NCBI GenBank assembly: GCA_900317745.1
Contig: ONHW01000013.1
Location: 1 to 64,000, forward strand
DNA: 64,000 bases
Direction of reading: 5' to 3'
Origin: an uncultured Bacteroidales bacterium
Lineage (GTDB): Bacteria; Bacteroidota; Bacteroidia; Bacteroidales; Paludibacteraceae
A program made the translations under genes and the position numbers. Positions within the stretch are counted from its first letter, which is position 1, and the number at the start of each line of letters is the position of its first letter. This document shows, in pieces, positions 2,565-58,030 of the stretch. The notes under the pieces were generated by a model, which saw only the letters and a program-made list of their open reading frames with translations, ran no database searches and had not been told where the DNA came from.

Positions 2565-4577
2565 ATGAAAAAAATTCTATCTCTGATGTGCGCTTTTGCG
2601 ATTGTGCTTGGCGCTTATGCAACTCCGCAGCTTGCTACCAAGCGGTTGGCTGTAGAGAAACAAAAGTTTGAGCAGAAAAGTATTCCTGCTCAGAAACAGG
2701 TGAACCCCGATTTGGCTGCTCTGAAGAAAAATGCCCTCCGTGCACCGAAAGCCAAGAAGGCTGAAACCAATGTAACGCTTGTCGATGAGGTCATTGATCT
2801 CAACTTCACCACCTCGTGCTCCAAGAAATACTACGCGGATACCAAAGACTGGTACCTCGTGGCGCAAAACAGCGATTATGCTGTAGTAATGGATCTCCTG
2901 AGCGAGAATGCTGACAATATCCCTACCGGCTCTTTCGAGACCGAGGATTTTGATCTGGACTACACCGGTATCTATGATTTTGAGGTTGGCAACAGCCTAA
3001 TCAAGGCTACTTCCGCTGCTGCCGAGATCTCCGTTAGCAACGACACGACCTTTATCCTTGCAGTACTCAAGTGCAATGACGGTAAGACCTACCGCGCTAA
3101 ACTCTTCTACGCTGATCCGAAATTCAAAGACCCCGTAGAAGTGGCGATTGCTACTGCTACCAGTACTGACTATGGCACGGATATGTACTATACCCTCAAG
3201 AACGCAGCCGGTGACTCCATCTTCTATTTCGATATCTATAAGGATCAGTCAGCTCAGGATATTACTTTAGGTCAGACCTATACCAAAGACGATATGGATG
3301 GCTCCTATTCTTGGATGAAATTGGCAGGAACGAGTGTAACCTATCTTTCCGCTGAGTTCAAGAAGACCAAGACCGATGGTCTGGTTCGCATCGAGGCTAC
3401 CGTTTCCGACAAGGAAGGCAATGTATATCACCTCGTTTACCAGGAGAAAGGCGTAGTGCCGACGGGTGAGGAAGTGACCCTCAAATTCGACTCCGCGATG
3501 GCTGTGCCGCAGTATTATGACGATGGCGCATGGGAACTCTATACCAAGCAAGGTGACACCACGGTTGCATTCGTATATGTGAACAATACCCCGACTTCAG
3601 CGGCAGGTGAATACACGGCAGAAGATTTGCAGGCTCAGTATTCCGGTATTATGTTCGGCGATGAGTATATAGCTTTCGCTTCAGGCTCGTTCAGCGTAAC
3701 CGAGACCAATGCACGTATCGACCTCGCGGCTGACATGCTTGGCAAGAACGGGGTGCTCTACCATATCTCAATGTTCTTCATCAAGCCGGTTGCATCTTCG
3801 CAGGAGACGATCAGCTCGAATGAGTTGACAATTAACGCAGCTTACTTCGATTGGTACGGAATAATCACATTTGAGGCGAGCGATGCGAACAACGCAATCA
3901 GTCTGACCGTCAATGCCAACGGCAAGGGCGCTCAGATGGCAGGCGAATACGTAGCAGGTACGGATTTCAATGGAACGGTTACCCCGACCAATGGCGTAGA
4001 AACGGAAATATACAGCGGCTCGATAGTGATTGCTGTTGCTGATAACGGCGACGTAACGCTGACCGGCACAGTGCTTGGAGCGAACAACATTGAGTACACG
4101 CTGAACCTGAAATATATCAAGCCGGAGGCTATCGTCAACAACATAGAAATAACCGCGGTTGATATAACCCAAGGCAGCGGTTTTGTTCGTTATACCTTAA
4201 GTAACGCTGATTACTATTTCTTCTTCACGATCAGCCTTGCATCGGGCGAGGATGTAGAATCCGGCAAGACCTATACGTTTGCCGACGACATGGGTGCTGA
4301 TACATATACCTCGTACGGTATGGATAAGAGCTACAATTACATCGACTATGCTTCCGCTACGTTCGTAAAGACAGTGAGTGCAAGCCAGATCAAGATTGAA
4401 GTATCCATCGTTGATGTTGACGGCAACACATGGAATCTGACATATACCGAAGCTGTCCCGACAGCCGTTGACGCAATCAATGCCGAGAACAATACCGTTA
4501 AGCGCATTGTATACGGTCAGGTAGTAATCGAGAAGAACGGCGTATTCTACAACATCCAGGGCACAGAGATCAAGTAA
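2565..4577 (+). CDS. Secreted protein of five repeated beta modules with C-terminal sorting-like motif
   Basis: A 670-residue exported protein. Residues 1-19 form a Sec signal peptide (MKKILSLMCAFAIVLGAYA) without a lipobox cysteine. After a lysine-rich linker (25-65), about five modules of roughly 100 residues follow (starting near 70, 190, 305, 415 and 530). Each has the pattern: hydrophobic strands, a G-x-Y-T or GTYT-like turn, an SG-x-hxV strand, and a closing DG-x-x-Y-x-L strand. The same module is recognisable in the proteins at 47,794 and 49,311. The last 28 residues carry the motif shared by ten secreted proteins here (YGQVVIEKNGVFYNIQG). I do not recognise a named family; a surface or matrix protein is an inference. 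Confidence 0.8.
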   Translation: MKKILSLMCAFAIVLGAYATPQLATKRLAVEKQKFEQKSIPAQKQVNPDLAALKKNALRAPKAKKAETNVTLVDEVIDLNFTTSCSKKYYADTKDWYLVAQNSDYAVVMDLLSENADNIPTGSFETEDFDLDYTGIYDFEVGNSLIKATSAAAEISVSNDTTFILAVLKCNDGKTYRAKLFYADPKFKDPVEVAIATATSTDYGTDMYYTLKNAAGDSIFYFDIYKDQSAQDITLGQTYTKDDMDGSYSWMKLAGTSVTYLSAEFKKTKTDGLVRIEATVSDKEGNVYHLVYQEKGVVPTGEEVTLKFDSAMAVPQYYDDGAWELYTKQGDTTVAFVYVNNTPTSAAGEYTAEDLQAQYSGIMFGDEYIAFASGSFSVTETNARIDLAADMLGKNGVLYHISMFFIKPVASSQETISSNELTINAAYFDWYGIITFEASDANNAISLTVNANGKGAQMAGEYVAGTDFNGTVTPTNGVETEIYSGSIVIAVADNGDVTLTGTVLGANNIEYTLNLKYIKPEAIVNNIEITAVDITQGSGFVRYTLSNADYYFFFTISLASGEDVESGKTYTFADDMGADTYTSYGMDKSYNYIDYASATFVKTVSASQIKIEVSIVDVDGNTWNLTYTEAVPTAVDAINAENNTVKRIVYGQVVIEKNGVFYNIQGTEIK

Positions 4578-4600
4578 TCTCTTACGCCTCACTTCAACGA

Positions 4601-4633
4601 CAAAGGTCTGCCGAACAGCAGACCTTTGTTTTG
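4601..4633 (+). terminator. Rho-independent terminator
   Basis: An 11-bp perfect stem, CAAAGGTCTGC (4601-4611) with GCAGACCTTTG (4618-4628), a 6-nt loop and the tail TTTTG, placed 24 bp after the stop codon. Confidence 0.9.
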
Positions 4634-4689
4634 TACCGAAGTGTCGGGAAGCGCTTTGGCGGGATAGTCCCCAAGTTAAGCAAACGGAC

Positions 4690-5392: not shown

Positions 5393-8300
5393 TCATTTCA
5401 CCCGTTCTCCTTGTACTGTATATACTACATTATCACGAAGGATAAAGAGTTGTCCGTTTTGTACGAACTTGGTGACATGAGTAGCCTCCAAAGCATTTGC
5501 ATCAATAGCAGTGGCAGCATCGGTAGCATCAATCACGAAGCGCACACGGCGCGACGGAGCAGGAGTAGCATCGTCCTTTGGCAATGGCAGATATGCCTTG
5601 CCGGCATTAACGATTGTACCCGAGTAGAGGAAGAATCCGCTATAGCCGAACAAGTCAGAGTGACGCAATGCAAAGATGTCGTGTGTAGCAGCCACGGCGG
5701 AGATATCCGTCTTAACTGCACACCCTACAAGGTTATTGCCGCTGAATGCAGATTCGGCTGCTTCAGCCTCATCGCTCGTAGCCAGAGTGAAGGGGTAATT
5801 GGTAGATACGCTCACGCATTGGAGCAAAGCGCCTGTATTGGCAGGAATAACATCACCTGCAGGTGTGAGTCGCAGGATCTCATCATCACCATCCTGCTCA
5901 TAAACAGCCTTGTACACCGTTATACCCGAAGGCACCTTGACTGCAACCGGCGAAGCGAACGTAGCCCAACCGTCCACATTGGACTTAGCCTGATAACGGA
6001 AGAAATAGAAGTTATCAATCATCAGTTCGTTGCCACCTACAGCACCCATAAACTTGAATTGGAAGATATTGCTCAAATCAATATTGTTAGCAGCATATGC
6101 ACTCAATGGTATATCGGCACTTGTCCAAGTATTCGGGGTCAGAGTGATTGTTGCAGAACCTTCTACGGGACCCGGGCTAATCGGTGTTACGTTCACTTGA
6201 GTCATGCCGGTAGAGTAAATATCCACGTGCAGGAAATCCATTGCAGAGGCGTTGATATTACCTCCGCCCCAGCTGTGCCAGCCGGCGTAGTTGAAGTTCT
6301 GCGCATAGAATACCTTGTCGTTAGGCGCAATCTGCAGCCACTCATGTTGTGTGGTTTCACCCCAACCACCGGAGTGAATGTTGCTAACCACACATGCCAT
6401 TGCATCAGTAAATATAGGAAGTACATCCTTGGCATTGAAGTCCGGCACAATCGGTGCAGGAACGAACTTGGTAGTTGCATTCAGTGCGATAGGCGAAGTA
6501 GTATTGTTTGCATCATCGTATGCAACCACACTGAGGTTATATGCCGTACCCGGAGTCAGGTTATTGACGGTAATGGTGGTAGCCACACCCGTAGCAGCAG
6601 CGCCGGTAGCGAGTACCTCTTCGCCGTTCTTGACTGCGAAATTCACAGCACCGCTGTTGTCAGAGGCCTGCGCTGTAACCTTGACGGAGTAGAAACCCAC
6701 TTCCGCAACCGATGCAGTAAAGGCAGTCGGAGCCTCCGTATCTACGATAGCCGTTTCACGATAGAAATATGCGTTAGCTACCCAGAAAGTCAAATTATAC
6801 GCATGATCTATCTTCATTTGATATACATTGCCCCAATCGGTAACATTCGTGTATTCAGATAGATCGATATCAATGCTATTCCACTGCTGACCGGTCAAAC
6901 TCTTGGTTATTCCTTGTTCTGCTCCACCCCAGATTGGCACGAAACGGATCGTTGCATCATCTGCAATCCAAATATCATAGTGCAGTTTTTCCATCATCAG
7001 GCAGTTGAGGCTGAAACCAGCTGAACCAAAGTAACCATTGGCGTTTGTGATATATTTCTTACCATAGGTTTCTTGAGTATAAATAGTACCGCCTCCCCAA
7101 TCTTGATGGTTATAGTCAGCATCATACGTCGGTGAGTACATTGCTTTCACTTGATTGGCCGGCCATGTCGGTGCTGCACATGCTGCCTGTGGCGCGGTAT
7201 AGTGAGCTGTGGTTGTAACGGCTACCGATTTGCTGTTAGCCGACACGTTGCCAAAGAGATCAACGGCTGTGATAACAAGGGTATAACTTGTACCACCTGT
7301 CAGACCGGTAACGGTAATTCTACCCTCTTCTGCCACGAAATTGCCGTCAAAGCTATTACCTGCATCTACAACATGATATCTCGCTATTCCGACATTATCC
7401 GTAGCACCAACTGCGATAACTGCCTGAACATCGGTGTTGCTTACCAGCGAAGCGGAACTCATGACAGGTGCTTCGGTATCCACCTCTGCGACACCCGATG
7501 CATATACGCGGAACTCACGCAGACGGAAGAAGCCGCCGGCAAATGAAGTTGCACGGAAACGCACATAACGGCCAATGCCGCTTACGTTTGTTGATTTTTC
7601 CTCACCGGCTGTTACACCCGATACGGTTGCTAATGTTACCCAAGCTGCATCATCAGCCTTATCATCAGCAGAAGGAGCCTCTATGCGCGTCTGCAGAATA
7701 TAACTTGTAGCATACGCATCGTTAGCCCAAAGAGCCGTGATATTAGTCAGGTTATAAATCTGACCAAGGTCAACGATCCACCAATCCAGTGACGCAGCAT
7801 GATCTCCGTATGTCACCCAAGAAGTACCATTATTACCATCATTGGCTTTATCTGCCGACTCTGCAGGATTATTATCATAATAGCCACCCTCAGAAGGTTG
7901 ATTCAGAGCCAAGTTGATAGAGCTATCAAACGGCGTAGAAACTGCTACCACTATGCTGTTTTCAGACTCGTTGCCGGATGCATCTTTCACCGTGATTGTG
8001 AAGTTATAGTCTGTTCCGTACGTCAAACCGGTAATAGTAATCTTACCATCACTCGGTGTAAAGTTGGCATCAATACCATTTGTTGCATCTACCACATGGT
8101 AACGTGCTACCTCTTCGTTATCCGTTGCAGAGACGGCAATTACGGCACTGTTAACAGTGCTACTTACCAAACTTGCACTTACCATTACAGGAGCCTCTTC
8201 ATCACCGCTCGTCCACTCTGTTCCATACACTTCGAACTCAAACAACTTCATACCCCATTCCGTAGCAGCCTTCGTGCTCCAGAAGCGGACGTAACGGACT

Positions 8301-10159: not shown

Positions 10160-11203
10160 TCATAATTGAATGCCACTAACATTATACCGCACACCATTCT
10201 TTTCGATGTACAGCACGCCGTTGAGCATTACTTTGCGGACAGCGGGTTGTGCTGTCTGATCTGTCAGGCCTGTTGACTCACTATTGGATGCACCGACCGT
10301 GTAATTGACATCAATACGGGCTGCATTGCCGGTATAAGCAACATAGAAGAAGAACGGCAGCAATGTTCCCTCCTCATACTCATCAGCAGTGGTATAAGTA
10401 GCGCTTTTGCCTTGCGCCTGCATAGTGCGGAAAGCGCCGTTGTTGATGTTCAGTTGCGGATTAGCACCCTCAAGATCCTTATCCCAACTGATAGCGAAGC
10501 TCAGCGTGTGATCCACATTGCGGGTAACGCTCCATGTGAACGTTGCCACCTCCATAACCTCTTTACCTGCAAAAGTGGCAGGAGTGAGGTGCTCCTCGTC
10601 CTTGAACGTAGCAGTAACCGTCACGTTGGATGCCGGCATAATGAACTTGCCTTTGCTTACATGCACTTCGTTCTCATCGGCATCGGTCACCAGCCACTTG
10701 GCAAGCTGCTTGCCTGCATCGGGCGTAGCGGTGAGAACCACCTCTGTGCCGTAAGTAGCTTTATCCACATTGGCAGCGATCATACCTCCTGATGCGGGTT
10801 GCAACACGGTGATGGTATATTCCGTAACATCGGTGGAGCATAATCCCCACTCTACATCGGTGAGCATACCAAAATTAACCTCACCCGGCATCATCACATA
10901 CAGCGGTGTGTAGAAATACGGATCGGTAGCCGACGTAAACGTGAGAATCAACGACTTGTTGTCCGCGCCTTGCGTCATGAACTCGCGCAAGTCGTGGTTG
11001 CCGTCGCTGAGCGTCATGAACGAGCCGCCGAGACCGGCAAGTTCGACATCCGCCTCGATAGTCATCTTGTATGTACCGCTCAGCAGTTCGCACGTCAGGT
11101 AGATGGTGTTGTCTGCCTGTGTGAGAGGTTCTTGACAATACTGCTTCGCCGAAGCGAACATGGTCGCTGCAAGAGCAAGCGTAAGAAGTAAGATTTTTTT
11201 CAT
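10160..11203 (-). CDS. Secreted protein with MMPGEV module and InlB-type repeat
   Basis: 347 residues, starting at the ATG at 11203 because it gives a clean signal peptide (MKKILLLTLALAATMFASA); an upstream ATG at 11236 would put 11 polar residues before it. Residues 20-125 form the YC...PLYVMMPGEV module also found at the start of the 1,580-residue protein. Residues about 135-205 form an InlB B-repeat-like domain (GT-V-LTATP...F). A third beta-rich region (215-320) resembles no family I can name. It ends with the shared motif (NGVLYIEKNGVRYNVSG). It is the middle gene of three large secreted-protein genes, probably one transcript. Confidence 0.8.
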   Translation of the reverse strand: MKKILLLTLALAATMFASAKQYCQEPLTQADNTIYLTCELLSGTYKMTIEADVELAGLGGSFMTLSDGNHDLREFMTQGADNKSLILTFTSATDPYFYTPLYVMMPGEVNFGMLTDVEWGLCSTDVTEYTITVLQPASGGMIAANVDKATYGTEVVLTATPDAGKQLAKWLVTDADENEVHVSKGKFIMPASNVTVTATFKDEEHLTPATFAGKEVMEVATFTWSVTRNVDHTLSFAISWDKDLEGANPQLNINNGAFRTMQAQGKSATYTTADEYEEGTLLPFFFYVAYTGNAARIDVNYTVGASNSESTGLTDQTAQPAVRKVMLNGVLYIEKNGVRYNVSGIQL

Positions 11204-11269
11204 GTCAGTAAGATTTAATTGTTTTTTAGCAAGCACAGGAGGATACCATCCTCCCGTGCCTAAATAGGA

Positions 11270-14200
11270 TTAGCGCACTACAGCACCCTGGATGGTGTAA
11301 ACTACACCGTCGCGGAGGATGAAGAGTGAGCCGTTCTCGATGAACTTCGTAGCCGGAGCAGCAGCGTTGATTGCGTCAACTGCGGTGCCACCATCAACCT
11401 TGTAGAAGTACACGTTGTCAACGAACAGGCTATTGCCACCAACAGGCACATTGAACTTGAACTGGTAGATGTTGCTCCAATCGATACCTGCCGATTCGTA
11501 CTCGCTGAGTGCGATATCCAGTGCATTCCACTGGCCGGGAGTAAGTGCCTTGGCAATAACTTTCTCCTTACCCGGGCTGATCGGGGTAACAGAAACTGAG
11601 GTCATTGCCTGAGTATAGACATCAACGTGGAGATACTCCATATCCGTTGCGTTGACAGCCGGGTTCAGTTCCCAACCGAGGTAGTTGAAGTTGGTGAAGT
11701 AGAACACATGGTCGCCTTCAGCCAGTTCACCGGCAGTTACCTGTGTAGATTGTCCCCAACCACCGATATTGATACCGGGACCACCATCGAGTGCATCGCA
11801 GAATACGGGCACAGCCTGTTTGCCTGTGAAGTCAGGCGTAGGAGCCGGAGCCGGTGCAGCAAGCGTCTTTGCACTAACAGCAACAGGATCGGCTGCATTG
11901 CCCGCCTCATCCTTGGCAATTACGGAGAAGTTATACTCGGTGTTCGGGAGCAATCCGGGAACAGTTACATTAACCGTTGCACCACTTGCGCCACCGGCTG
12001 TTGCATAAACGTGATCGTTGGCAACAACTTCAACCATATAAGCGCCGGAGTTATCCTTAGCCGACACAGCAAGAACTACAGAGAAGATATCTTCCGAAAC
12101 TTTTGCTGCCGTTACGTCGGTCGGTTTCTCGTCGTCAACCAGAGCAGTTGTACGGTAGAAATATACGTTATCGACGCAGATATGCTCGCCTACCAATCCA
12201 CCTGCCTGATAGCCCTCGATTGCATACTGGAAGAGATTCGTCCAGTTCTGAGCGCCGAAGTCAGCCATATCGATATCAAACGAGTTCCACTTCTCTGCTT
12301 CGAGATTTAGTGTCTTTCTAACTTCAGCACCACCGGTAATCGGGCGGAAAGTAATCGAACCTGCAGCAGAAGCATATACATCAATGTGGATTTTCTCCAT
12401 CGTAGCAACAGATGTCGCAGCGAACTGTACACCAATCATACCGTTGCGGTAGAGGTTGTAATGCAGGAAGTGATCTTCACCAACAGTCTCTTCGGTCAGC
12501 GTAGGATTTTCCCACCAGCCTTCGTTGTAGGAGTTCAGCGAAGCAGGAGCGAACTCGTAAGCGTCGCTATAGAGGCTCTTGACTTGTGCAGCCGGCCATG
12601 TGGGTACGGGTGCAGCGGTTGTAGGAACAATGTGGTGCTCCTCGGTAGTTACAGCCACGGTCTTGCTGTTGGCTGACTCATTATTCGCACCATCAATAGC
12701 CGTGATAACAAAGTTATAGGTAGTAGAAGCTGTCAGCCCTGTCAAAGTGATCTTACCATCAGCAGGCAATAGTTTCTTGTCAATACTATTGGCTGTCTCC
12801 ACAACGCGGAACGCAGCCACCTCATGGTTGTCGGTAGCGGCAACTGCAATCACGGCATTGTCCCAACCTGCACTAACCAGTTCGGCACTAACCATAACGG
12901 GTTTCTCGTTGTCATCCACATCCACCCATTCGGTACCAAACACGCGTACCTCTTTCAGACGGAAGAAGTTAGCAGACTTTGTTAACGAGTGAATACGTAC
13001 ATAGCGTGCAGCAGCCTTCACAACATTGAACTGCTCGCTGTTAATCGTTATTCCACTCTGCTCGGCAACAGTTGTCCACGCCTCGTCATCGGCAGCCTGT
13101 TCGGCTGTCGGAGCCTCAGCGCGCACTTGCAGGATGTAACTTGTGGAGGTCGGATCGCCCCACAATACATCAATCGCTTCTACATTATATTTGCCACCAA
13201 GGTCGATATATGCCCACTCTACCGATGCCGATTGATCGGCGTATGTCACCCATTGGGTGTTCGCATCACCATCCACCATCTTGCTTGACAACTCGCCTTG
13301 GTTGCCCGGCTCATAACCTGCAACAACAGGCTTGTTCAGGGCGAGGTTGTCACTCGATACACCATAGATAGTGAGGGATTCGCTTATATCGCCTGCCTTG
13401 GCAGTAATGACAGCAGCGCCAGCTTTGGCGGGAGTATATTTACCGTCTGCCACTACTCCGGCATCAGCCGGACTAACCTCAAACGAGATAACAGCATCCA
13501 TGTTCTTGTTCAGTTGGTCCTTGGCTTGTGCAGTGAGTGTCACGCTCTCGCCTATCTTCGCAAATGACGATGCCGCACTAAGAGCGATACGAGTCAGTAC
13601 AGCATCAGATGAACATTTGGTACCATAAGTGTATTCAAACGTGAGTGTAGGCCATGCATTGCCATCCTTACTGGTAGCATACTCAATGATCTGACTTGTC
13701 ACATAGATCTTCGTGCCCTGCTCAAGAGTCTTACCCTCTTTTAGGGAAAGTGTAATGGTATTTGAGCCACCACATGCCAAATCAAAATACGTAGCCGCAT
13801 CTTCGCGTGCCTCACCTACTTTAATCTTGTCGATGTTAATGCCATTGCCACGGAAATGCGTGGCTTCATCTGCACCGCCAAGGGTCTCGCTGATAGTGAT
13901 TACCACCGCACCGGCATCGTTGGTTTCCCATGTGAATGCAGCTTCGGTGTTACCGCTACTCATAATTTCACCGCAATACTCGGATGTAGGTTCAGCATTA
14001 CCGCCACCACCTTCGGTGCCGTCTTCATAGTACACTGTGAACACAGCAGTGCCTGTCCCGTGCGTAACGGTTACTTCCGTTTCCTTTGCAGTAAAAGCAC
14101 TCAGATAAAGCACCATACCCGCACCTTGAGCAGCATATTTGCCAGAAGGAAGAGAACAGTCGCTTACCGCAGCAGGGAAAGTGGTGTAAATACCGGCTTC

Positions 14201-24425: not shown

Positions 24426-25478
24426 TTATTGTACACGATTACCCAATACGTCATAGGCAGCACCATCACGCAGCAGATATATCACACCGTCACGCAGCAC
24501 CTTGGTAGCCTGCTTGGTGGCACTGATGGTATGAATCGCGGTCGTTCCTTCCGGCTCAATTGCATCGGAAGCCGACGGACAAACGAACGACTCACCTGCA
24601 TCGCCACGCTGGTAGATACGAATCCAATCGATGTACATCGAGCGCGGACCGTCAGCCAGGGCTGTGATCTTGTTTACGTCATAAATACCCGGAAAATTAC
24701 CTCCGACCGCCACATTGGCAATGATGAAATTCGGCTTGCCAAACACGAGGCTGCGGTCATAGTCGGGATTATCGTTCGGCTCGAGGTCAGCGTGGAAGTA
24801 CGCATCGTTCTCGGGGTGCGAATCGAGGTCCATATACATATCAATGGATGTAGGTGTCCAGATCATCGTAACGATATGGAACGTATCCTCGACCGAATAC
24901 GGCCATGTTACCGCATTGGCATCGCTCCACACAGCGTCCCACTTTGAGCCGACATGCATAGCACCGTTGAAATAGCGGTCCTGTGTTCCCTTGTTGAACG
25001 CGCTCTGATGTCCAAGCTCGATGATATCCGTCTCGCCGCAACGCGGCCAGCCTACCTGCTTGTAGTTGTTACCCATCTGCCAGAATGCAGGCCAGAGGCC
25101 GTTGGCAGTCTGTGGGAACTTGATACGCGCATCAATGCGGCCAAAGGTGTAATACGCCTTACTCTGTGTATTGACACGCCCGGAGGTACATTGCTTGCCG
25201 CCAAACGCCTCTTTGGTTGCGGTGAGGATAAGGCAGTGCTTGCCGGTAGTAGGCTCAACGCCTAACTTGACACCGCGGTCACAGTAATACTGCAACTCGT
25301 TGTTGCCGCCTCCATCGCCGTTGGTTTCAATGTTCCAGACTTGGGTATCGAGTGCTCCATCTGTGAAATCCTCGTTCCAGACGAGTTGGTAATCCTGCGC
25401 AACAGCAGAGACTGTAGTTGCGGCAAGGAAAACCAATGCAAGGCTAATGTATGATATGCTCTTCTTCATAATCATCAA
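24426..25478 (-). CDS. GH16 beta-1,3-glucanase with C-terminal sorting-like motif
   Basis: 350 residues. The signal peptide (to about residue 28, TTVSAVAQ) has no lipobox. The GH16 domain follows at once (30-285) with the motif ETDIIE (E149, E154) and WPAFWQMG. A Ser/Thr-rich linker then leads to the shared C-terminal motif (LRDGVIYLLRDGAAYDVLG). The start codon overlaps the stop of the GH128 gene by 4 nt (ATGA); an in-frame ATG at 25469 (MKKSIS) is an equally good start. It is the intact paralogue of the broken GH16 at 21,114, but with motif instead of lipid anchor, so the two copies appear to have been addressed to the surface by different routes. Confidence 0.92.
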   Translation of the reverse strand: MMIMKKSISYISLALVFLAATTVSAVAQDYQLVWNEDFTDGALDTQVWNIETNGDGGGNNELQYYCDRGVKLGVEPTTGKHCLILTATKEAFGGKQCTSGRVNTQSKAYYTFGRIDARIKFPQTANGLWPAFWQMGNNYKQVGWPRCGETDIIELGHQSAFNKGTQDRYFNGAMHVGSKWDAVWSDANAVTWPYSVEDTFHIVTMIWTPTSIDMYMDLDSHPENDAYFHADLEPNDNPDYDRSLVFGKPNFIIANVAVGGNFPGIYDVNKITALADGPRSMYIDWIRIYQRGDAGESFVCPSASDAIEPEGTTAIHTISATKQATKVLRDGVIYLLRDGAAYDVLGNRVQ

Positions 25479-41190: not shown

Positions 41191-41197
41191 TCGGGCA

Positions 41198-41229: not shown

Positions 41230-41243
41230 TATTCTGCCTATAA

Positions 41244-41275
41244 TTTGCATTTTTGGATAATTTTTTGTAACTTTG
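41244..41275 (+). promoter_or_regulatory. Promoter of aroC
   Basis: TTTG (41244-41247) and TAACTTTG (41268-41275), 20 bp apart. It is back to back with the regulator's promoter; the two -33 elements are only 14 bp apart. Confidence 0.85.
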
Positions 41276-41289
41276 CACCGAAAATAGGG

Positions 41290-41352
41290 TAAGTTGAGAG
41301 TTGAGCGTTGAGCGTTTAGCGAAGTTGAGAGTTTAGCGTTTAATAGTTTAAC
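41290..41352. repeat. Heptad tract in the aroC 5' leader
   Basis: GTTGAGA, GTTGAGC, GTTGAGC, GTTTAGC and related units fill the leader almost up to the ATG at 41366. Confidence 0.85.
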
Positions 41353-41365
41353 AGCATAACAAAAC

Positions 41366-45900: not shown

Positions 45901-47564
45901 ACGTGAAGAAGTTACAATACAAGACCGGCTCCGATGCATGGAGTTCTGTAACTATTCCTTCGGGCGAATATTCAGGACCAAAGACCATCACCGGTCTAAC
46001 ACCTGCACGCTCGTACCAGGTGCGTCTGTTGCCTGCATGCTCGGCTGAGGAGGAAAGCAACTGGACAACACCGGTGTTCTTCATGAGCAATTCGGTTGAG
46101 AGCACACCTTACTACAAGGATTTCGAGAGTGAGACTGCCGGCGAAGTACCGTTCAACTGGAGCAGGGTTTCGGCATCCGAATATCCGCAGATCAGTTATG
46201 ACGCGTATGCTTATCATGATACGTTCGGAGAGAAAGGCAACAGTATCAAGTTCTACGGCACCAACGACCAGATCATCGTTCTGCCCGAGTTCAGCACCGC
46301 ACTGCGGGATCTCAGCATCTCGCTACACTACCGCAACCGCGACTGCAAGATGGAGTTAGGTTACGTAGCCTCGGACGGCACTACGTTCACCGCTATCGCT
46401 ACCCTGCCCAACCAGACAGGCTACGGCGAGTTCCCCTACGAGAAAGTGCTGAAGAACATCAATGCCTCGGCATACAAACTTGCTATCCGCTACAGCGAAG
46501 CTACAGGAGCAAGTTCGCAGGCGTTCGTTGACAACGTGCGGGTAGAAGAGCCTACCTGCGGTCAGCCGGAAGCACTGACCTTAGGCACTGTTACTGCCAA
46601 CAGCGTTGAACTGAGTTGGAGCGTATCGGAACTGGGCACAGAAACCCAATACCAGTATATCCTGCGCCCATGGAACGAAAGTAATCCTAACTGGGCATCA
46701 GCAACTCTGCTCGATGGTGTACGCTCGATCAGCCGCAGCGGTCTGAGTGCCAACACGAATTACGAGTTCTACGTCCGTTCGTACTGCGATGGTAGCCACC
46801 AGAGCACGCCTGTACACATTGAGTTCAGGACAGAAATGCTTGAAGAGGTGTTTGAGGACATAGCTACCGCCACAGACAACCAAACTCGTCTGGCAGCACT
46901 CGTAGGGCAGACGCTGAACATAACCATCAACCGTCCGCTGACGCTCAACGGAGACTACTGCACATTGACACTGCCGTTCAACCTGAGTGCGTCACAGATA
47001 GCCGATCCCGAATGTCCGTTGCACGGATTCGTGATCAAAGAGTTTGAGAGTTCGGAGGAGAAAGACGGAGCAGTGAACGTCTATCTGAATCAGGTATATG
47101 CCATTGAAGCCGGTAAACCGTACTTTGTACGCTACGGCGGTGCTCCATCCGACAGCCGACTCACTCCGTTGCAGTTCAAGAATGTAACGGTAGCATGCAG
47201 CACGCCTGTGGCAGCCGTTGACGAAGGCTTCACGCCGCACGGAGTATTCAACCCGTACAGCCTGATTGCCAATGATGCAAGCACCCTGTTCCTCTCGTCA
47301 GCCAACACATTGTACTATCCGTCAGCAGACGGCACGATGAACGGATTCCGTGCATACATCAAGGTGAGCGGCAGCATGGGCGCACCTATACGCCGCGGTG
47401 CACCGGTACGTATCTGCGAACGCGAAAACGTGGCTACGGGCGTAATAGACAATAGTCAAAAGTCGAAAGTCGAAAGTCAAAAGTCGAAAGTGCTCATTGA
47501 CGGACAGCTGCTGATCATACGTGACGGCAAGACGTACAACGCACAGGGACAACTGATCCGATAA
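42996..47564 (+). CDS. Large secreted FnIII/choice-of-anchor-J protein with C-terminal motif
   Basis: 1,522 residues with a Sec signal peptide (1-27). Residues 28-180 form a module (ATYNYN...NQFTLNITQKG...SDDRTLEG) shared with the next secreted protein at 47,794. Four or more cycles then follow of an FnIII domain (ITW...ELTGL...YYVRVKA) and a jelly-roll domain of the choice-of-anchor-J type (PWSYGFET...CW...FVDNVSV). A beta domain (about 1285-1480) and a linker encoded by GTCGAAA/GTCAAAA heptads lead to the shared motif (DGQLLIIRDGKTYNAQG). The domain set is that of surface adhesins or matrix proteins; no catalytic site is seen. It probably heads a transcript including the next genes. Confidence 0.88.
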   Translation: MKIKQLFLSGLLTALLCVVGTNNVCGATYNYNTVIQSIEVIQSDAITTNQFTLNITQKGVNSGGSSYSSTMTMVLESDDRTLEGLYSTLSSATNKLKSADLIYSTNVRALNTTTSKFKINKVSDGHYSIGDPSSNTDCQLHFKQTSPSNNHTYNYFYSYKYDSGTSGTATTFNQFAFDFTPKYAVAPTSVSASAVGATTATIGWTSSESAWQYVCLPATTTLTEDLWTSNAVSVNTKSVNLTGLTPATRYKFYVISDRGASGTSVIVSTEFTTECETVSLPWSYGFETGVTNNQTPLCWGELKCTGSTNGYVQATTLAKKAGTYGLRIAGGRSSSSPKSEVIAVFPEFEEEISNLELSFYYKTDMDIIDPDWGNTIYGKLQLGYVTNPSNAATFVAVGEPLDQKSTFTPQTESIVMSSAPSGARFAILYTGGENLGFASIDDITVREKPACNKPAGVSAGSETAEGATITWNANGMSTWKLQVSEGDAASWGEEIDVATNSKELTGLNSNTLYYVRVKADCGGGSVSEWSDNVSFTTLCGTVSVSASASWNMDFEGLSDHIVPDCWDNSASTTTSSWGAGYIWGTYSRGGNTMLAMSNSSLDGGTALMNTPAIAIPNDGNTYELTFDHSNMAPVGNNLIVKISANGGAFADKGTYYPSGNVSSYPGTFTKATISLADYSGKTIKIQFFANPTSGTSSEGGAMFVDNVSVHKEPTCFAPTALTFSSLTSASAQVSWTNGGEESAWRLQYRTTEGSWSAEQVVSSKPYTLTGLSANTEYLVRVKSYCAADDQSEWSEVGSFTTLCAAASMPFSESFSSASELPSCWEATSTVSNGWSAYEKSGAYSVQLRTGSSGEAELRMPAINLSEAAILRFEWKNANGANANIYISTNGGTTKTLLANDLSNVHSDWTTKIFDLSTYTGETVLIYFKSQFSSINQYAYLDDIEVVARPCDMILNIQVTSGATISWIGNVKKLQYKTGSDAWSSVTIPSGEYSGPKTITGLTPARSYQVRLLPACSAEEESNWTTPVFFMSNSVESTPYYKDFESETAGEVPFNWSRVSASEYPQISYDAYAYHDTFGEKGNSIKFYGTNDQIIVLPEFSTALRDLSISLHYRNRDCKMELGYVASDGTTFTAIATLPNQTGYGEFPYEKVLKNINASAYKLAIRYSEATGASSQAFVDNVRVEEPTCGQPEALTLGTVTANSVELSWSVSELGTETQYQYILRPWNESNPNWASATLLDGVRSISRSGLSANTNYEFYVRSYCDGSHQSTPVHIEFRTEMLEEVFEDIATATDNQTRLAALVGQTLNITINRPLTLNGDYCTLTLPFNLSASQIADPECPLHGFVIKEFESSEEKDGAVNVYLNQVYAIEAGKPYFVRYGGAPSDSRLTPLQFKNVTVACSTPVAAVDEGFTPHGVFNPYSLIANDASTLFLSSANTLYYPSADGTMNGFRAYIKVSGSMGAPIRRGAPVRICERENVATGVIDNSQKSKVESQKSKVLIDGQLLIIRDGKTYNAQGQLIR
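47455..47489. repeat. In-frame heptad tract in a C-terminal linker
   Basis: Five units (GTCAAAA, GTCGAAA, GTCGAAA, GTCAAAA, GTCGAAA), 35 bp, encoding a Ser/Lys/Val linker with a seven-residue period just before the C-terminal motif. Confidence 0.92.
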
Positions 47565-47793: not shown

Positions 47794-49314
47794 ATGAAGA
47801 AAACATCACTGATACTTGCGTTGTGCCTTGCCGTGATGGCAGGCAACGCCGCGACGTACAACTACCTGTGCGCCATAACCGAGTTGAGCGTTGACACGCT
47901 CGCCAGCAACAGCAAGAACCAGTTCACGCTCCAGTGGACGCAGAAGTGCAAGAACATAGCCGAGTACAGCAGCAAGCCTACCGGCACATACACGACAACA
48001 GTGAAGCTCGTGCTGAACTCCGACGACCGCACGCTGGAGGGCACTTACACCACAGAAGGCGCGAGTCCCACGAGCAGCAGCGCTAACGTTAACGACCAGA
48101 CAATCAACCTGGTGACCTCTGAGTTGTACTACGGCAGCACGCGCCGCTTGCTGCGCACGGATTCGATATCCACGTTCACGATCATCAAGATCGACGACAC
48201 GCACTACGGCATTAGCGTAGGCAGGTTATGCTTCACGGCAGCCTCGCTGGCTGACCGCAACAAGCACACATACAACTACAACTACTGCTATGCCGAAGAG
48301 GAGATACTGGTACAGGGCATAGACCCCAAGCCGTACATTTTCGGCTACGAGAGCGGCTACCAGGCACAGGTGCATAATTACGACATGAGCGTTACGGGCA
48401 TTGATGTAGAGCGTTCGGATACTGAGTTCGGCGCACGCCGTTACTTTGTAACGCTGAACTGCACGGGCACAAACCGCGAGACAGGTGCTGCGCACAACTA
48501 CGAGGCGCAACTGGCTATCTATCCCACCGGCGAATCGATCGTCGGCTCGTTCGCCACACAGGGCAGCAGCGACATTCTGATGGCAACGAACAGTTACATC
48601 AAGGACAACAACGCCGGCAAACTGCGTTACCTGTGCAACGACTCGCTGAGCACGATACAGATCAAGTTGAAAGGTGAGAACCAGTACTCGTTCTACGGCG
48701 GCACGCTGCTGTGCGTGGATATGGACGCAAACTACAGCGCCGTATATGGCAAGAAACGTGTAGAGGCAGTACACTACTACCACTTCAGCGACAATGAGGG
48801 CGAGGGCGTACCCTTCGGTTGGGATGAAACGAACAAGACTGCCCAGCTGACCCCCACCAAGGTGACTGTCACGCCGGTGACGGAGAGTGAGGAGATTGTG
48901 GGTTACCAGTTGCTCGTAAAAGCGAACTCGGCAAACGGCATACAGTACGAGGCACTGCTGGATATAGACGCGGCTCTACTTGACGGCACGTTCAGCGTGA
49001 ACGAGGGCACACTAACGCTGTGGTCGAAGGTCGGTCACGGTGCAGCAGAATCGTACGTGACAAACGGTGCCACCGTAAGCATCACACCGAAGACCGGCAA
49101 CACCCACACCCTGTCGGCAAACCTGCTATGCGAGAACGGATACACCTATACCCTGCAGGCGTTCGACTTCAACTACGGCGAGGCTGTGGGAACAGGAGTA
49201 GAAAGTCAAGAGTCGAAAGTCGAAAGTCAAAAGTCGAAAGTGTTGCGCAACGGACAGTTGCTGATTATCCGTGACGGAAAGACCTACAACGCACAAGGTG
49301 CACAACTGCAATGA
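47794..49314 (+). CDS. Secreted beta-module protein with C-terminal motif
   Basis: 506 residues from the ATG at 47794 (MKKTSLILALCLAVMAGNAA). Residues 19-165 match the N-terminal module of the 1,522-residue protein (ATYNYL...NQFTLQWTQK...SDDRTLEGTY). Two further modules (about 185-320 and 335-470) resemble those of the 670-residue protein at 2,565. The last part holds a heptad-encoded linker (VESQESKVESQKSKV) and the shared motif (NGQLLIIRDGKTYNAQG). Its stop overlaps the next start by 4 nt (ATGA), showing translational coupling. I cannot name a family; a structural surface role is inferred. Confidence 0.82.
   Translation: MKKTSLILALCLAVMAGNAATYNYLCAITELSVDTLASNSKNQFTLQWTQKCKNIAEYSSKPTGTYTTTVKLVLNSDDRTLEGTYTTEGASPTSSSANVNDQTINLVTSELYYGSTRRLLRTDSISTFTIIKIDDTHYGISVGRLCFTAASLADRNKHTYNYNYCYAEEEILVQGIDPKPYIFGYESGYQAQVHNYDMSVTGIDVERSDTEFGARRYFVTLNCTGTNRETGAAHNYEAQLAIYPTGESIVGSFATQGSSDILMATNSYIKDNNAGKLRYLCNDSLSTIQIKLKGENQYSFYGGTLLCVDMDANYSAVYGKKRVEAVHYYHFSDNEGEGVPFGWDETNKTAQLTPTKVTVTPVTESEEIVGYQLLVKANSANGIQYEALLDIDAALLDGTFSVNEGTLTLWSKVGHGAAESYVTNGATVSITPKTGNTHTLSANLLCENGYTYTLQAFDFNYGEAVGTGVESQESKVESQKSKVLRNGQLLIIRDGKTYNAQGAQLQ
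49198..49239. repeat. In-frame heptad tract in a C-terminal linker
   Basis: Six units (GTAGAAA, GTCAAGA, GTCGAAA, GTCGAAA, GTCAAAA, GTCGAAA), 42 bp. Confidence 0.92.
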
Positions 49315-51242
49315 AACGACTCGTACTGACCACACTCATCACTCTGGTTGCTGTACTGCACGCCGCAGCGGCATTCAACCTGACCGCATCGAGAGTGACG
49401 ATTGAAGATATGACGGTTGACAAACCGAACTACTTCGTTACCGTGGCTGCCGCTACATCCACGGGCGAATATGAGGTAGCGTTTGATATATGGCCGGGCA
49501 AGCAGTCACCGGTAGGCTCGTTTACGGCTGCGGAAAAGACGATCAGTTATGTCAGCAGTTACGTCCATAAGACGCGCGCGAACGGCAGCGCGGTGAACAT
49601 GTGGTACTACCCTGAGCCGGATGCAACTATCAGTCTGACAATCACAAACAACGGCGACGGCACATGCAAGCTGAGCGGCTCGATAGACGCCACACGCAAC
49701 GAGGTGACGTACACCTACGTAATTGCGCCGTACGACTTCGAGTACGATGCCGAGGATATACCCGAACCGCAGGAAGATCCGTACCGCTTTGAGCCGAAAG
49801 AAGTCACCTCGATACAGTTCAGCGCGGATGTGGTGAACTTCCGTCAGCGTGAGGGATACATCGAGATCACGCTCAACGAGATGGCTAACGAGACCTACAA
49901 TTGGATTGAACTACGCCTGTTGTCGGACACAATGGCGTGGCAGGCAGGCACGTACGCAATAGACAACAGCGGCATAGCCGGTTCGCTGACCGCCTCCAAG
50001 GGTTACCTGGGCGGCACACGAGGCGATGATCCGTGCTACCTGGCTATACGTGCCGACAAGGAGAGCTGGGGACAATACACCCCGTACTACCTCCAATCAG
50101 GCACGGTGGAGGTGAGTTACAACGCCGTGGGCGACACGATCATCGTGAGCGGCTCGGCACTGTCGTACAACGGCTCGACGGTTCAGTTCACGGCGCGCAG
50201 TTACAACATGTTGTTCGTACCCGAAGAGCAACCGCGCCAACCGGAGTTCGTCAATCTGGCTATCGACACCGTGCTGATCACTTATCAGAGCGACCTGTCG
50301 GACAGCACGAAAGGCGAGTTCTACTACACGTTCAACTTCTTCAGCCGCGGCGGAGACTATCCGAACGTGCTGGTGGATATGATCCTGGACCAGCCTATGG
50401 CACTGACCGCCGGCACATACACGCTGGCTGACAACCAACTCATCGGACTGAACCTGTTCCAGAACCAGGAGGATTTCAATGCCGTGTTCTTCGGCGGTGA
50501 GCCGTACGTGTTCGCTACGGCAGCACTGACACTGAGCGAGGTGCAGGACGGCAAGTGGCAATACGCAATGCTCATAACCGACACCATAGGCAGCGAATAT
50601 ACATTCGATTTTGCACAAGATCCGCATATCGTACACTACCCTATCCCCGTTGATCCGACCGAGGAGAAAGACAAGCCGTACATCGACGAGCAGAAGACAG
50701 CCGTGACCGTCAGCGTGACCCTCGACTCGCTACTGTGGAACACGAAGTCGGTAAGCAAAGACGGCATATTGGATATCTACCTCACGCAACAGAAAGCGGA
50801 CGTTAACGGACTGAGAGCCTATCTGCATTTAGGGATGTACACCGACAGCGAGTACCCTGAGGCTGGTTCGTATGCCGTGAACGGCAGCGAAGAGAACGGC
50901 ACGTTCAGCGCCTCGCTCGGACGGTTCGGGAACGTGCTTATCCCCTGCTACCTGCTGCTGATAGATGCCGAAGGCTGGGCGCACGCCGTGTGGTACATTG
51001 TGGACGGAACGATACGTATCGCTTACGACGCGCAGCAAGCGCCTGTACTGAGCGGTACATGCACCACGTACTTCGGTTCAACAATCCACTTCACGTACGG
51101 AGATATAGATAACGGAGTGGAAGATGTTGTAGTCGAGAGTCAAAAGTCGAAAGTCAAAAGCAGGAAAGTGGTACGCGACGGACAACTGCTGATCATACGT
51201 GACGGCAGGACGTACAACGCACAAGGACTGCAAGTCAAGTGA
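49311..51242 (+). CDS. Secreted protein of four beta modules with C-terminal motif
   Basis: 643 residues with a Sec signal peptide (MKRLVLTTLITLVAVLHAAAA) and no lipobox. About four modules of 130-150 residues follow (starting near 22, 160, 305 and 460), each with the pattern of strands, G[ST]Y turn (AGTYAIDN, AGTYTLAD, AGSYAVNG), SGT[VI] strand and a closing strand. They are related to those in the proteins at 2,565 and 47,794. The linker (VESQKSKVKSRK) is encoded by 7-bp units and precedes the motif (DGQLLIIRDGRTYNAQG). Coupled to the gene before it by a 4-nt overlap, so the two products are probably made together. Confidence 0.82.
   Translation: MKRLVLTTLITLVAVLHAAAAFNLTASRVTIEDMTVDKPNYFVTVAAATSTGEYEVAFDIWPGKQSPVGSFTAAEKTISYVSSYVHKTRANGSAVNMWYYPEPDATISLTITNNGDGTCKLSGSIDATRNEVTYTYVIAPYDFEYDAEDIPEPQEDPYRFEPKEVTSIQFSADVVNFRQREGYIEITLNEMANETYNWIELRLLSDTMAWQAGTYAIDNSGIAGSLTASKGYLGGTRGDDPCYLAIRADKESWGQYTPYYLQSGTVEVSYNAVGDTIIVSGSALSYNGSTVQFTARSYNMLFVPEEQPRQPEFVNLAIDTVLITYQSDLSDSTKGEFYYTFNFFSRGGDYPNVLVDMILDQPMALTAGTYTLADNQLIGLNLFQNQEDFNAVFFGGEPYVFATAALTLSEVQDGKWQYAMLITDTIGSEYTFDFAQDPHIVHYPIPVDPTEEKDKPYIDEQKTAVTVSVTLDSLLWNTKSVSKDGILDIYLTQQKADVNGLRAYLHLGMYTDSEYPEAGSYAVNGSEENGTFSASLGRFGNVLIPCYLLLIDAEGWAHAVWYIVDGTIRIAYDAQQAPVLSGTCTTYFGSTIHFTYGDIDNGVEDVVVESQKSKVKSRKVVRDGQLLIIRDGRTYNAQGLQVK
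51133..51160. repeat. In-frame heptad tract in a C-terminal linker
   Basis: Four units (GTCGAGA, GTCAAAA, GTCGAAA, GTCAAAA), 28 bp. Confidence 0.9.
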
Positions 51243-55942: not shown

Positions 55943-56003
55943 TTGAGAGTTGAGTGTTGAGTGTTGAGTGTTGAGAGTTGAGGACTGAGGGTTGAGGACT
56001 GAA
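55943..56003. repeat. TTGAGTG heptad tract between two secreted-protein genes
   Basis: About eight units (GTTGAGA, GTTGAGT repeated three times, GTTGAGA, GTTGAGG, ACTGAGG and so on) begin directly after the stop codon at 55942. Confidence 0.92.
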
Positions 56004-56029
56004 ATACAAACAATTAAACGCCATAGTTT

Positions 56030-58030
56030 ATGAAAAAGATTTTTACACTAACCGCTATTTGCGCGCTGCTGTTCAGCGCAAGTGTTACGGCTCAGGATTT
56101 CCCGAGTGATCCCGGTACACTGATGGTTGACCTGGAACTTATTGCCGCCGACTTCTCGTCGGGCGACACGATTGCCAATCAAGCACCGGAAGGTTCAGGT
56201 GCGTATGCTTCCGGCACGACACTCACCATCACCGCCAAGACCATTCAAGGCTACACATTCGAGAAGTGGAGTGACGAAGTAACTGACGCAAGCCGTCAGA
56301 TTACACTGACCGAGTCAATGTCGCTGACGGCATTGTACACGCACAACTCGTACTCTATCCTATTCAAGAACGACAATGGCGAGACTCTAAGCGAAGGCAA
56401 CTACTTCTACGGAGACGAAGTTACTGTACCTGATACACCGGTGAAAGATGCAACGGACGAATTCACGTACACCTTTATCGGATGGAATCCGCAGGTAGGT
56501 CCTGTTACCGGTCCGCAGACATATATTGCAGTGTGGGATACCACTACGAACCGTTACCCCGTAACGTTCTTCGATTGGGACGGTGAGACTGTCCTGTACG
56601 CTGATACTCTGGCGTACGGCACAATGCCGCAGTACAAAGGCGAGACACCTACTCGCGAGACAACCGAGGGCACTGTATATACATGGAGCGGTTGGGATCC
56701 CGAGCTTCACGCTGTAACCAAGGGCGAGAACAACTATACAGCCACCTACACTGACAAGTTGCTGGATTTTCAGGTAACGATTGTATATGACAAGGATACA
56801 ACCAAACAAACTATTTCCTGGGGCGAAGAGATTGAGTTGAACGCTCAGGACAACACAGACAGACACTTCGTTCAGTGGCAAGACGGATTGGTAGAGAACC
56901 CGCGTAACGTAACAATCATCAGCGATACGACGTTCGTTGCCGAGTATGCCGATTCGTACGTCAACGTTGCCGTAGCAGCCAACCAGTGGACATTCTTCTG
57001 CCTGCCGCAGCTCATGATGGCAGACGGCTGGAACGAAGATATGCTCGTAACAAGCGACCTGGCAGGTGTTGCATGGGGTACATACAACGGCGCTGTTCGT
57101 GCCGAGGCCCGTTCGGGTTGGGAGACACCCGAGATGTTCAATGCATTGCAGGGATATATCATTTACAGCACCAAGGCCGGTAACCTGCGTCTGAACGTCT
57201 ATGCCGAGAACCTGATGAAGGAGGCGATTACCGTTTCGCTGGAAACCTACGAAGCCGAGCACGCTCAGAACGCCAACTGGAACTTTATCGGTAACCCGTA
57301 CAACACTGAACTGTCCGCAGCAGCCATTACGGCTCAAGGTCTGACCGATGCATCGGCAACGATCTGGAACGGAACAGGTTATACCAACGAGTTGCTGAGC
57401 AGCCAGAATCTGACATTCCAACCACTGCAGGCATTCTTTATCCAGACTGACGGCGAGGGCTCCTTGTCGTTCAGCGGCGCCCAATCACCTGCTCCGGCAC
57501 GTACTGCACAGGTTGAGGAGAACAGCCGCATTGATATCGAGGCAACCGCCGGAGGCTACACCGACAAGACCCGTGTAATCTTCCGCAGCAACTCGAGCTT
57601 GAAGTACGAGGCAGGTCGTGATGCATCGAAGTTCATGACAGCAACTGCTCCTGTACAGATGTACTTCCTGGATGTAGATAACGTACAATGCGCACAGATG
57701 GTTCGTCCGGCAGGCGAGGATGCAATGCGTCTGGGTTACATGATTCGCACGGCAGGTGAGATGGAGATCAATATGCCTGTATATGCCGAGGATTATGAGT
57801 TGTATGACGCTTTGACCGACCGCAGCTACAACCTGAGCGAGACAGTAAGCATCTACTCGGAGGCAGGCACGTACAACAACCGTCTGTCATTGCGTCCGAT
57901 CAAGCGCGTGCCGACCGCTGTTGACAACGCTGTAGCCGGCAGCACGACCACCAAGCTCATGCTGAACGGTCAGTTGTACATCGTACGCGACGGTAAGATG
58001 TTCACCGTACAAGGTACACAAGCCAAGTAA
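56030..58030 (+). CDS. Secreted protein with InlB-type repeats and C-terminal motif
   Basis: 666 residues with a Sec signal peptide (MKKIFTLTAICALLFSASVTAQ). Three or four InlB B-repeat-like domains (about 45-310; YTFEKWSDEV, YTFIGWNPQV, YTWSGWDPEL, FVQWQDGL) are followed by a larger beta region (315-630) with WTFFCLPQLM and NWNFIGNPYN, the kind seen at the end of many Bacteroidales surface proteins. The shared motif closes it (LNGQLYIVRDGKMFTVQG). Surface attachment or binding is likely but unproven. A good terminator follows. Confidence 0.85.
   Translation: MKKIFTLTAICALLFSASVTAQDFPSDPGTLMVDLELIAADFSSGDTIANQAPEGSGAYASGTTLTITAKTIQGYTFEKWSDEVTDASRQITLTESMSLTALYTHNSYSILFKNDNGETLSEGNYFYGDEVTVPDTPVKDATDEFTYTFIGWNPQVGPVTGPQTYIAVWDTTTNRYPVTFFDWDGETVLYADTLAYGTMPQYKGETPTRETTEGTVYTWSGWDPELHAVTKGENNYTATYTDKLLDFQVTIVYDKDTTKQTISWGEEIELNAQDNTDRHFVQWQDGLVENPRNVTIISDTTFVAEYADSYVNVAVAANQWTFFCLPQLMMADGWNEDMLVTSDLAGVAWGTYNGAVRAEARSGWETPEMFNALQGYIIYSTKAGNLRLNVYAENLMKEAITVSLETYEAEHAQNANWNFIGNPYNTELSAAAITAQGLTDASATIWNGTGYTNELLSSQNLTFQPLQAFFIQTDGEGSLSFSGAQSPAPARTAQVEENSRIDIEATAGGYTDKTRVIFRSNSSLKYEAGRDASKFMTATAPVQMYFLDVDNVQCAQMVRPAGEDAMRLGYMIRTAGEMEINMPVYAEDYELYDALTDRSYNLSETVSIYSEAGTYNNRLSLRPIKRVPTAVDNAVAGSTTTKLMLNGQLYIVRDGKMFTVQGTQAK

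What the first reader, a model, noticed from the sequence alone, without database searches (positions are those of the whole stretch)
2565..58030. A short C-terminal motif marks ten secreted proteins and excludes lipoproteins
Seen: the proteins at 2565, 5393, 10160, 11270, 24426, 34218, 42996, 47794, 49311 and 56030 end within about 28 residues in K-hh-x-x-G-x-hhI-h-[RK]-[DN]-x-h-h-[YF]-x-h-x-G-x-x-h. Examples are NGQLLIIRDGKTYNAQG and NGVFYNIQG. All have Sec signals without lipobox. None of the lipoproteins (GH30, GH128, both Big2-GH16, two SGBP-like, SusD) has it. Known: type IX secretion uses C-terminal domains of about 70-100 residues; this one is far shorter and lacks their final strands. 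Inference: it may be a reduced or distinct sorting signal. The two GH16 paralogues at 21114 and 24426 support this, one being lipid-anchored without motif and the other having motif without lipid anchor.
Basis: partly seen in the sequence, partly recalled or inferred. Interest (0 to 1): 0.78.

Follow-up and report, generated by a model that had tools for sequence, protein, structure and literature searches.

The report
Half-size C-terminal secretion tag
Nearly a hundred secreted-type proteins of this gut bacterium end in the same roughly 28-residue tag, which looks like the front half of the known type IX secretion signal and seems to have taken over that signal's place in its genus, in a form that standard signal models do not find.

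Summary
In detail: a profile built without the window finds 10 of 10 tails and no other frame. The genome has 99 hits, all at C-termini, mostly behind Sec-type N-termini (83 of 99 against 17 of 101 control frames), none a clear lipoprotein. Best reading: a reduced type IX secretion (T9SS) C-terminal signal. (1) Five genomes of the genus have 53-81 tails and 1-5 ordinary CTDs; 17 sister genomes have 0-13 tails and 9-62 CTDs. (2) Endonuclease I carries the tail in 6 of 6 own copies, in sister genera almost always an ordinary CTD; its tree needs at least 9 switches. (3) The tail resembles the CTD front half up to motif B; similarity to motifs D-E is at most faint. (4) A PorU-like site is enriched upstream. 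(5) It is modelled as three strands behind a loose linker. Sov/SprA, PorU and PorZ are present; PorU and PorZ keep full CTDs. Short CTDs known from Prevotella intermedia keep motifs B, D and E. No T9SS model in Pfam or NCBIfam hit it. Secretion is untested.

The parts
4479..4577 (+). tail (last 32 residues and stop) of gene 2565-4577, no Pfam domain found
5393..5491 (-). tail of gene 5393-10135 (F5/8 type C and fn3 domains)
10160..10258 (-). tail of gene 10160-11236 (Flg_new_2 / InlB B-repeat domain)
11270..11368 (-). tail of gene 11270-14383 (F5/8 type C and fn3 domains)
24426..24524 (-). tail of gene 24426-25478 (GH16, not a lipoprotein)
34218..34316 (-). tail of gene 34218-38087 (GH81 C-terminal domain and F5/8 type C)
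47466..47564 (+). tail of gene 42996-47564 (not domain-scanned)
49216..49314 (+). tail of gene 47752/47794-49314 (not domain-scanned)
51144..51242 (+). tail of gene 49311-51242, no Pfam domain found; modelled alone as a three-stranded sheet
57932..58030 (+). tail of gene 56030-58030 (Flg_new_2 domain)

Best explanation
The tail is a miniature T9SS sorting domain. The protein crosses the inner membrane by Sec and loses its signal peptide (N-termini seen; processing inferred). In the periplasm a flexible linker presents a three-stranded beta-sheet of about 28 residues that ends in the motif-B loop (Y-x-x-x-G-x-x-h) (fold predicted; sequence shown). The T9SS outer-membrane machinery (Sov/SprA translocon present; PorV-type shuttle assumed) recognises this half-domain in place of the full seven-strand CTD (inferred). 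PorU cuts at a T|G-[IV] or T|A-[IV] site typically 12-17 residues before the conserved Lys, removing about 35-43 residues, and the protein is released or attached to surface polysaccharide (site enrichment shown; cutting inferred). In this genus, probably of the Paludibacteraceae, the half-signal has replaced most ordinary CTDs, while PorU and PorZ, which in P. gingivalis keep their CTDs uncut, retain full ones.
For: 99 genomic hits, all at C-termini. Sov/SprA, PorU and PorZ present. Full-CTD (PF18962, E <= 0.01) counts in five genomes of the genus are 5, 3, 4, 1, 5 against 9-62 in 17 sister genomes (chosen by me from 96 sampled), the inverse of tail counts 81, 74, 63, 59, 53 against 0-13. Endonuclease I: own 6 of 6 with tail; other genomes of the genus 13 of 14 fetched (of 18 found); sister genera 0 of 45 closed frames. 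At least 9 label changes on the enzyme tree, 7 forced by well-supported branches. CTD front-half profile hits 63 of 99 tails at E <= 1; 200 shuffles give mean 2.5, maximum 10, and internal windows of the same proteins mean 3.4, maximum 8. T[GA][IV][DEQNA] in 27 of 96 linkers against 0-6 in each of five windows further upstream. Models.
Against: No secretion, cleavage or localisation data. The known essential C-terminal elements (motifs D and E, the near-invariant Lys close to the C terminus; PMC10202324, PMC10994853 and PMC11285876, passages) are absent or not in their usual place, although 55 of 99 tails end in K or R. Motif B is not universal in CTDs (not conserved in T. forsythia mirolase, PMC11285876), and a cryo-EM study says conserved CTD motifs shape the fold and mostly do not touch the translocon (PMC10994853). 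Presence of SprA does not discriminate, and one tail-bearing sister with 9 tails, G227, gave no SprA hit, perhaps a gap in the assembly. The swap test rests on one enzyme family. The cleavage pattern was chosen after seeing the sequences and reading PMC11969387; 69 of 96 linkers lack it. PorV and the motor were not searched for.
Confidence: 0.76

Rival explanations
1. It is the short CTD already described in Prevotella intermedia (motifs B, D and E closed up), or a rearranged D-E-B form of it.
For: Similar length class (24 of 27 signals with a site are 35-43 residues here; 40-51 in P. intermedia, PMC11969387 passages), a predicted three-stranded sheet in both, a PT/GI-like site in both. 'GQLLIIRDGK' can be read by eye as a D-E hairpin. 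A D-E profile hits 11 of 99 tails at E <= 1, more than internal windows of the same proteins (mean 1.4, maximum 5) and reached by only 5 of 200 shuffles: a faint signal.
Against: Order differs: motif B is last here and first there. The front-half profile is far stronger (63 of 99). Free alignment of tail and ordinary endonucleases puts the tail on the front half with one motif-B Gly in all 18 rows. The genome also carries at least one P. intermedia-like short CTD as a separate thing (L011).
Confidence: 0.12
2. It is a sorting tag for a secretion or anchoring route other than T9SS that took over cargo in this genus.
For: Not hit by T9SS models; lacks clear motifs D and E; the T9SS attachment proteins themselves keep full CTDs.
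Against: It takes the exact place of T9SS CTDs on the same enzymes, resembles their front half, has the PorU-like site, and lacks the transmembrane helix and basic end of exosortase-type tags (sequence; definition recalled).
Confidence: 0.08
3. It is not a sorting signal but a small binding or retention module kept on mature periplasmic or surface proteins.
For: It is modelled as a discrete small domain and no cleavage was shown.
Against: Carriers range from nucleases and proteases to a flavodoxin/cyclophilin-like protein and an LRR protein; all 99 hits are last in their protein, none internal; absent from the window's lipoproteins; reciprocal with CTD counts.
Confidence: 0.03
4. Chance similarity or recent duplication of one gene family.
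For: Three window neighbours (42996, 47752, 49311) share very similar tails and linkers, so some copies are recent.
Against: Unrelated domains upstream, 0 of 394 other phylum genomes hit at E <= 1e-4, shuffle controls.
Confidence: 0.01

Closest known systems
T9SS type A CTD (PF18962 / TIGR04183)
   Same: C-terminal place on Sec-exported proteins, motif-B loop and strand before it, T-G-[IV]-like site in the linker; swaps with it on endonuclease I
   Different: about 28 residues (mostly 35-43 from the putative cut) instead of 67-88 in P. gingivalis cargo; no clear motif D or E; not hit by either model
Short CTD of Prevotella intermedia (Ye et al. 2025, PMC11969387; outline, passages and sections 19, 20, 22 read)
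   Same: short, three predicted strands, PT/GI-like site, in a T9SS genome that also has long CTDs
   Different: keeps motifs B, D and E in order and loses spacing; here the chain stops at motif B. There 48 short and 32 long; here 99 tail hits against 5 PF18962 hits at E <= 0.01
T9SS type B and C CTDs
   Same: C-terminal T9SS signals of distinct sequence class
   Different: type B is much longer and uses PorP/SprF shuttles (PMC10202324, PMC12618676 passages); no NCBIfam T9SS model matched the tail
PEP-CTERM / exosortase-type sorting tags (recalled)
   Same: short C-terminal tag shared by many unrelated secreted proteins
   Different: no transmembrane helix or basic end; beta-sheet instead

Membership tests
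T9SS type A CTD | located at the extreme C-terminus of Sec-exported proteins | tested here: met
   99 of 99 hits end within 11 residues of the stop; strict signal-peptide pattern in 83 of 99 against 17 of 101 other window frames, which include true exported proteins. SignalP not available
T9SS type A CTD | T9SS machinery in the genome | tested here: met
   SprA 2652 bits, PorU, PorZ; PorV and the motor not searched
T9SS type A CTD | match to PF18962 / TIGR04183 | tested here: not met
   neither model among hits of 8 window proteins (8 of 10 scanned) or of 84 tails
T9SS type A CTD | motif B | tested here: met
   tail columns 20-28 align to motif B in 34 of 56 ordinary CTDs with an alignment, of 58 searched; shared Gly in all 18 rows
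T9SS type A CTD | motifs D and E | tested here: not met
   D-E profile: 11 of 99 tails at E <= 1, none at E <= 0.01, a faint excess over controls; a like profile hits 58 of 58 ordinary CTDs, some of them in its own seed, and no clear relic in 89 downstream regions
T9SS type A CTD | seven-strand Ig-like sandwich of about 70-100 residues | tested here: not met
   three predicted strands in about 28 residues
T9SS type A CTD | PorU cleavage site and cleavage | tested here: inconclusive
   site pattern in 27 of 96 linkers; cleavage not testable
T9SS type A CTD | secretion depends on Sov/PorV | not testable with these tools
   needs mutants or reporters
P. intermedia short CTD | motifs B, D, E in that order within about 40-55 residues | tested here: not met
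   motif B last; D and E at most faint; definition
P. intermedia short CTD | single three-stranded sheet | tested here: met
   (predictions in both cases)

The most novel reading that the evidence does not exclude
A further class of T9SS sorting signal: a half-CTD of about 35-43 residues ending at motif B, which works without motifs D and E and without the C-terminal Lys contact thought to be essential. It has replaced most of the secretome's signals in one genus and may use an altered or dedicated PorV-type shuttle.
Probability: 0.53. Interest if true: 0.75.

Novelty: new variant of a known kind. Interest (0 to 1): 0.62.

Why it matters
What the T9SS translocon reads in its signals is unsettled: mutant work points to the C-terminal end (motifs D and E), other work to the motif-B loop or the overall fold. 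A natural signal that keeps motif B and drops the rest makes that question testable. Practically, 50-100 secreted proteins per genome in these uncultured herbivore-gut relatives escape current T9SS models. It would also be a very small export tag if it works as proposed.

Tried and rejected
SprA is in 29 of 31 tail-bearing and 67 of 70 tail-less genomes of the family sample, and in 5 of 5 and 182 of 193 of the order sample.

PorU or PorZ as carriers: read by eye, PorU (13 of 13) and PorZ (13 of 13) end in full CTDs in every genome looked at, including five of the genus. I had hoped to find the tail there; this neither supports nor refutes it.

Circular permutation (D-E-B): attractive by eye. 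The D-E similarity is faint (11 of 99 tails; 5 of 200 shuffles reach it; internal windows at most 5), the front-half similarity strong (63 of 99).

Signal-peptide score: too lenient (90 of 96 tail proteins pass, but so do 44 of 101 control frames); replaced by the strict pattern.

Family models on the tails gave only weak unrelated hits: best Pfam PF24591 (E 0.0029, 3 of 84) and PF20606 (0.013, 3 of 84); best NCBIfam E 0.027.

Labels left 44 closed endonuclease frames without a profile label. By eye most are ordinary CTDs; exceptions are three dockerin-like ends, two frames without a CTD-like end (L217, L221), one masked end (L296) and one odd frame (L318). In one search they count as 'non-tail', except L296 and L318, which were left out with the 12 open frames (141 of 155 rows used). 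L249 is counted as a tail although its last residues depart from the motif.

Literature: searches (listings and abstracts) showed no description of this tail; nearest is PMC11969387. Subscription papers, including the earlier CTD survey cited there, were not seen.
Full report
WHAT IS THERE. To avoid circularity I built a profile from 74 tails of the same genome that lie outside the window and ran it on all 757 window frames of 40 aa or more: 10 of 10 tails score E 7.5e-15 to 9.6e-7, the next frame scores 0.13, and 20 shuffles of everything give a best of 0.0097. The eight lipoprotein-like window proteins give no hit.

GENOME-WIDE. The ten are a small share. In the 2.6-Mb genome a profile of the ten finds 99 places at E <= 10, 84 of them at E <= 0.001. 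I fetched the frames of all 89 outside the window. With the larger profile A2 (84 tails) all 99 matches end within 11 residues of the stop codon. Three lie in fragments under 60 aa. A strict signal-peptide pattern is met by 83 of 99, against 17 of 101 other window frames, some of which are exported proteins. Eighteen were flagged by a loose lipobox pattern; by eye nearly all have a Cys inside the hydrophobic core followed by more hydrophobic sequence or an AxA-type site, a few are frames without a good signal peptide, and one is ambiguous (C29:65933). SignalP was not available. Carriers are unrelated: GH16, GH81, GH53, amylases, subtilase, M6 peptidases, CotH, endonuclease I, LRR, DUF4832 and others (28 of 99 domain-scanned). 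Conserved positions are one Lys, a Gly after it and, near the end, Y-x-x-x-G.

LINEAGE. In 198 genomes of the order, four others have one tail each at E <= 1e-4; in 395 of the phylum, none but the own genome. In 101 genomes of the family, 31 have tails at E <= 1e-3: five of the same genus with 81, 74, 63, 59 and 53 (in four of the five only 81 candidates were scored, so these are lower bounds), and 26 others with 1-13.

IS IT A T9SS SIGNAL? First, reciprocity. Ordinary CTDs (PF18962, E <= 0.01) number 5, 3, 4, 1 and 5 in the five genomes of the genus and 9-62 in 17 sister genomes, without overlap; tails in those 17 number 0-13. I chose the 17 from 96 sampled, taking tail-rich and tail-less ones. 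PF18962 misses divergent CTDs: below its cut-off several own-genome hits still look like CTDs. Second, swapping on one enzyme. Endonuclease I has six copies in the own genome and all six end in the tail. In the other four genomes of the genus 13 of 14 fetched copies (18 found) do, the exception ending in an ordinary B-D-E signal. In sister genera 0 of 45 closed frames do; by eye nearly all show an ordinary CTD. Among the 80 named loci, at the matched frame, 9 end in the tail, 61 in a B-D-E pattern, 5 in something else, 4 are cut off and 1 is masked (one of the five, L305, also looks like a short B-D-E end by eye). On a tree of the catalytic domain (141 rows, 31 with tail) the label changes at least 9 times, 7 of them forced by well-supported branches (quick search, some long branches, one of them an own tail row). 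So one part seems to have been exchanged for the other repeatedly at the same place.

WHICH PART OF THE CTD. Aligned freely with ordinary endonucleases, the tail falls on the front half of the CTD, with the motif-B Gly common to all 18 rows. The tail profile's best local alignments on 56 ordinary CTDs fall on motif B in 34, on the strand before it in 7, elsewhere or very short in 15. In the other direction, a profile of 52 CTD front halves hits 63 of 99 tails at E <= 1; 200 shuffles of the tails give mean 2.5 and maximum 10, internal windows of the same proteins mean 3.4 and maximum 8. The D-E profile hits 11 of 99; shuffles give mean 5.6 and maximum 13 (5 of 200 reach 11), internal windows mean 1.4 and maximum 5. 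So the front-half likeness is strong and a faint D-E likeness cannot be excluded. Single scores are weak; the contrast is what counts. No clear remains of D-E lie behind the stop codons. AlphaFold2 models a tail-bearing endonuclease relative with strands 317-321, 324-329 and 332-335 (pLDDT by tens from 311: 60, 85, 86) behind a disordered linker, and a window tail alone with three strands (mean pLDDT 89.6, pTM 0.53).

CLEAVAGE SITE. In P. intermedia CTDs are preferably cut at PT/GI (PMC11969387, section 3.5 read). Here T[GA][IV][DEQNA] occurs within 30 residues before the conserved Lys in 27 of 96 proteins, against 0, 6, 2, 1 and 1 (of 92-96) in successive windows upstream, and 2.7 on average (maximum 7) in 200 shuffles. 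In 26 of the 27 it lies 12-17 residues before the Lys; the signal from there to the end is 35-43 residues in 24 of 27. The pattern was chosen with the sequences in view.

MACHINERY. Sov/SprA, PorU and PorZ are present; PorU and PorZ end in full CTDs in all 13 genomes checked. In P. gingivalis these two keep their CTDs (PMC10202324, passages), so they may face other constraints than cargo. Presence of SprA across family and order has no power. PorV was not searched for.

COMPARISON. A review recognises CTD types A, B and C (PMC10202324, passages). Short CTDs are reported from P. intermedia, 48 short beside 32 long, with three predicted strands corresponding to strands 3, 6 and 7 of long CTDs and motifs B, D and E kept; cleavage sites were found for five short CTDs and glycosylation at the mature C-terminus for cargo of both kinds (PMC11969387; passages and sections 19, 20, 22). 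The authors call it the only species reported with both. The tail here is a different reduction: motif B is kept and the end is lost. That is unexpected because truncating two C-terminal residues inactivates RgpB export, the last 22 residues carry the HBP35 signal (PMC11285876, passages), and the one conserved contact to PorV in cryo-EM is a Lys near the C terminus (PMC10994853, passages). On the other side, replacing the motif-B loop of RgpB blocks its secretion; but the same paper finds that motif not conserved in a Tannerella CTD (PMC11285876, passages). By the membership table it is not a type A CTD as defined (motifs D/E, length and model match not met); that it works like one is the best-supported reading. 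No T9SS model of Pfam or NCBIfam hit it.

VERDICT. Real, abundant in one genus, and best explained as a half-size T9SS sorting signal. Shown: the sequence family, its place, its reciprocity with CTDs, the swaps. Inferred: recognition, export and cleavage.

Noticed in passing
L205 (own genome C27:18000-24500), also L208 and L209: PorZ is one long frame of 1372-1454 aa with two PorZ N-terminal propeller matches in three of five genomes of the genus; the other two have a normal frame of 790-793 aa.
   Followed up: partly
window 21114-22128, minus strand: A lipoprotein-type GH16 gene is split into two frames at what looks like its catalytic motif; pseudogene or sequencing error cannot be told apart here.
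   Followed up: partly
L011 (own genome C23:21066 region, minus strand): A short C-terminus of the P. intermedia B-D-E kind exists beside the half-CTDs, so the genome seems to hold long, short and half CTDs.
   Followed up: no
L093 (own genome C25:1020-6598); L246 (same genus): Three (L093) and four (L246) endonuclease I genes in a row, all with the half-CTD.
   Followed up: yes
L052 (own genome C8:20720-21893): Near-identical tail copies in short frames at a contig end next to a frame that breaks off inside its tail; repeat or assembly problem.
   Followed up: no
L117, L118, L120: Single C-terminal tails (two of them with extra residues behind) in three other families of the order, so the tail may be older than this family or have spread sideways.
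   Followed up: no
window 38164-41664 minus and 41366-42367 plus: Two long frames overlap by about 300 bases at their 5' ends; the regulator-like minus-strand gene probably starts further in (by eye).
   Followed up: no
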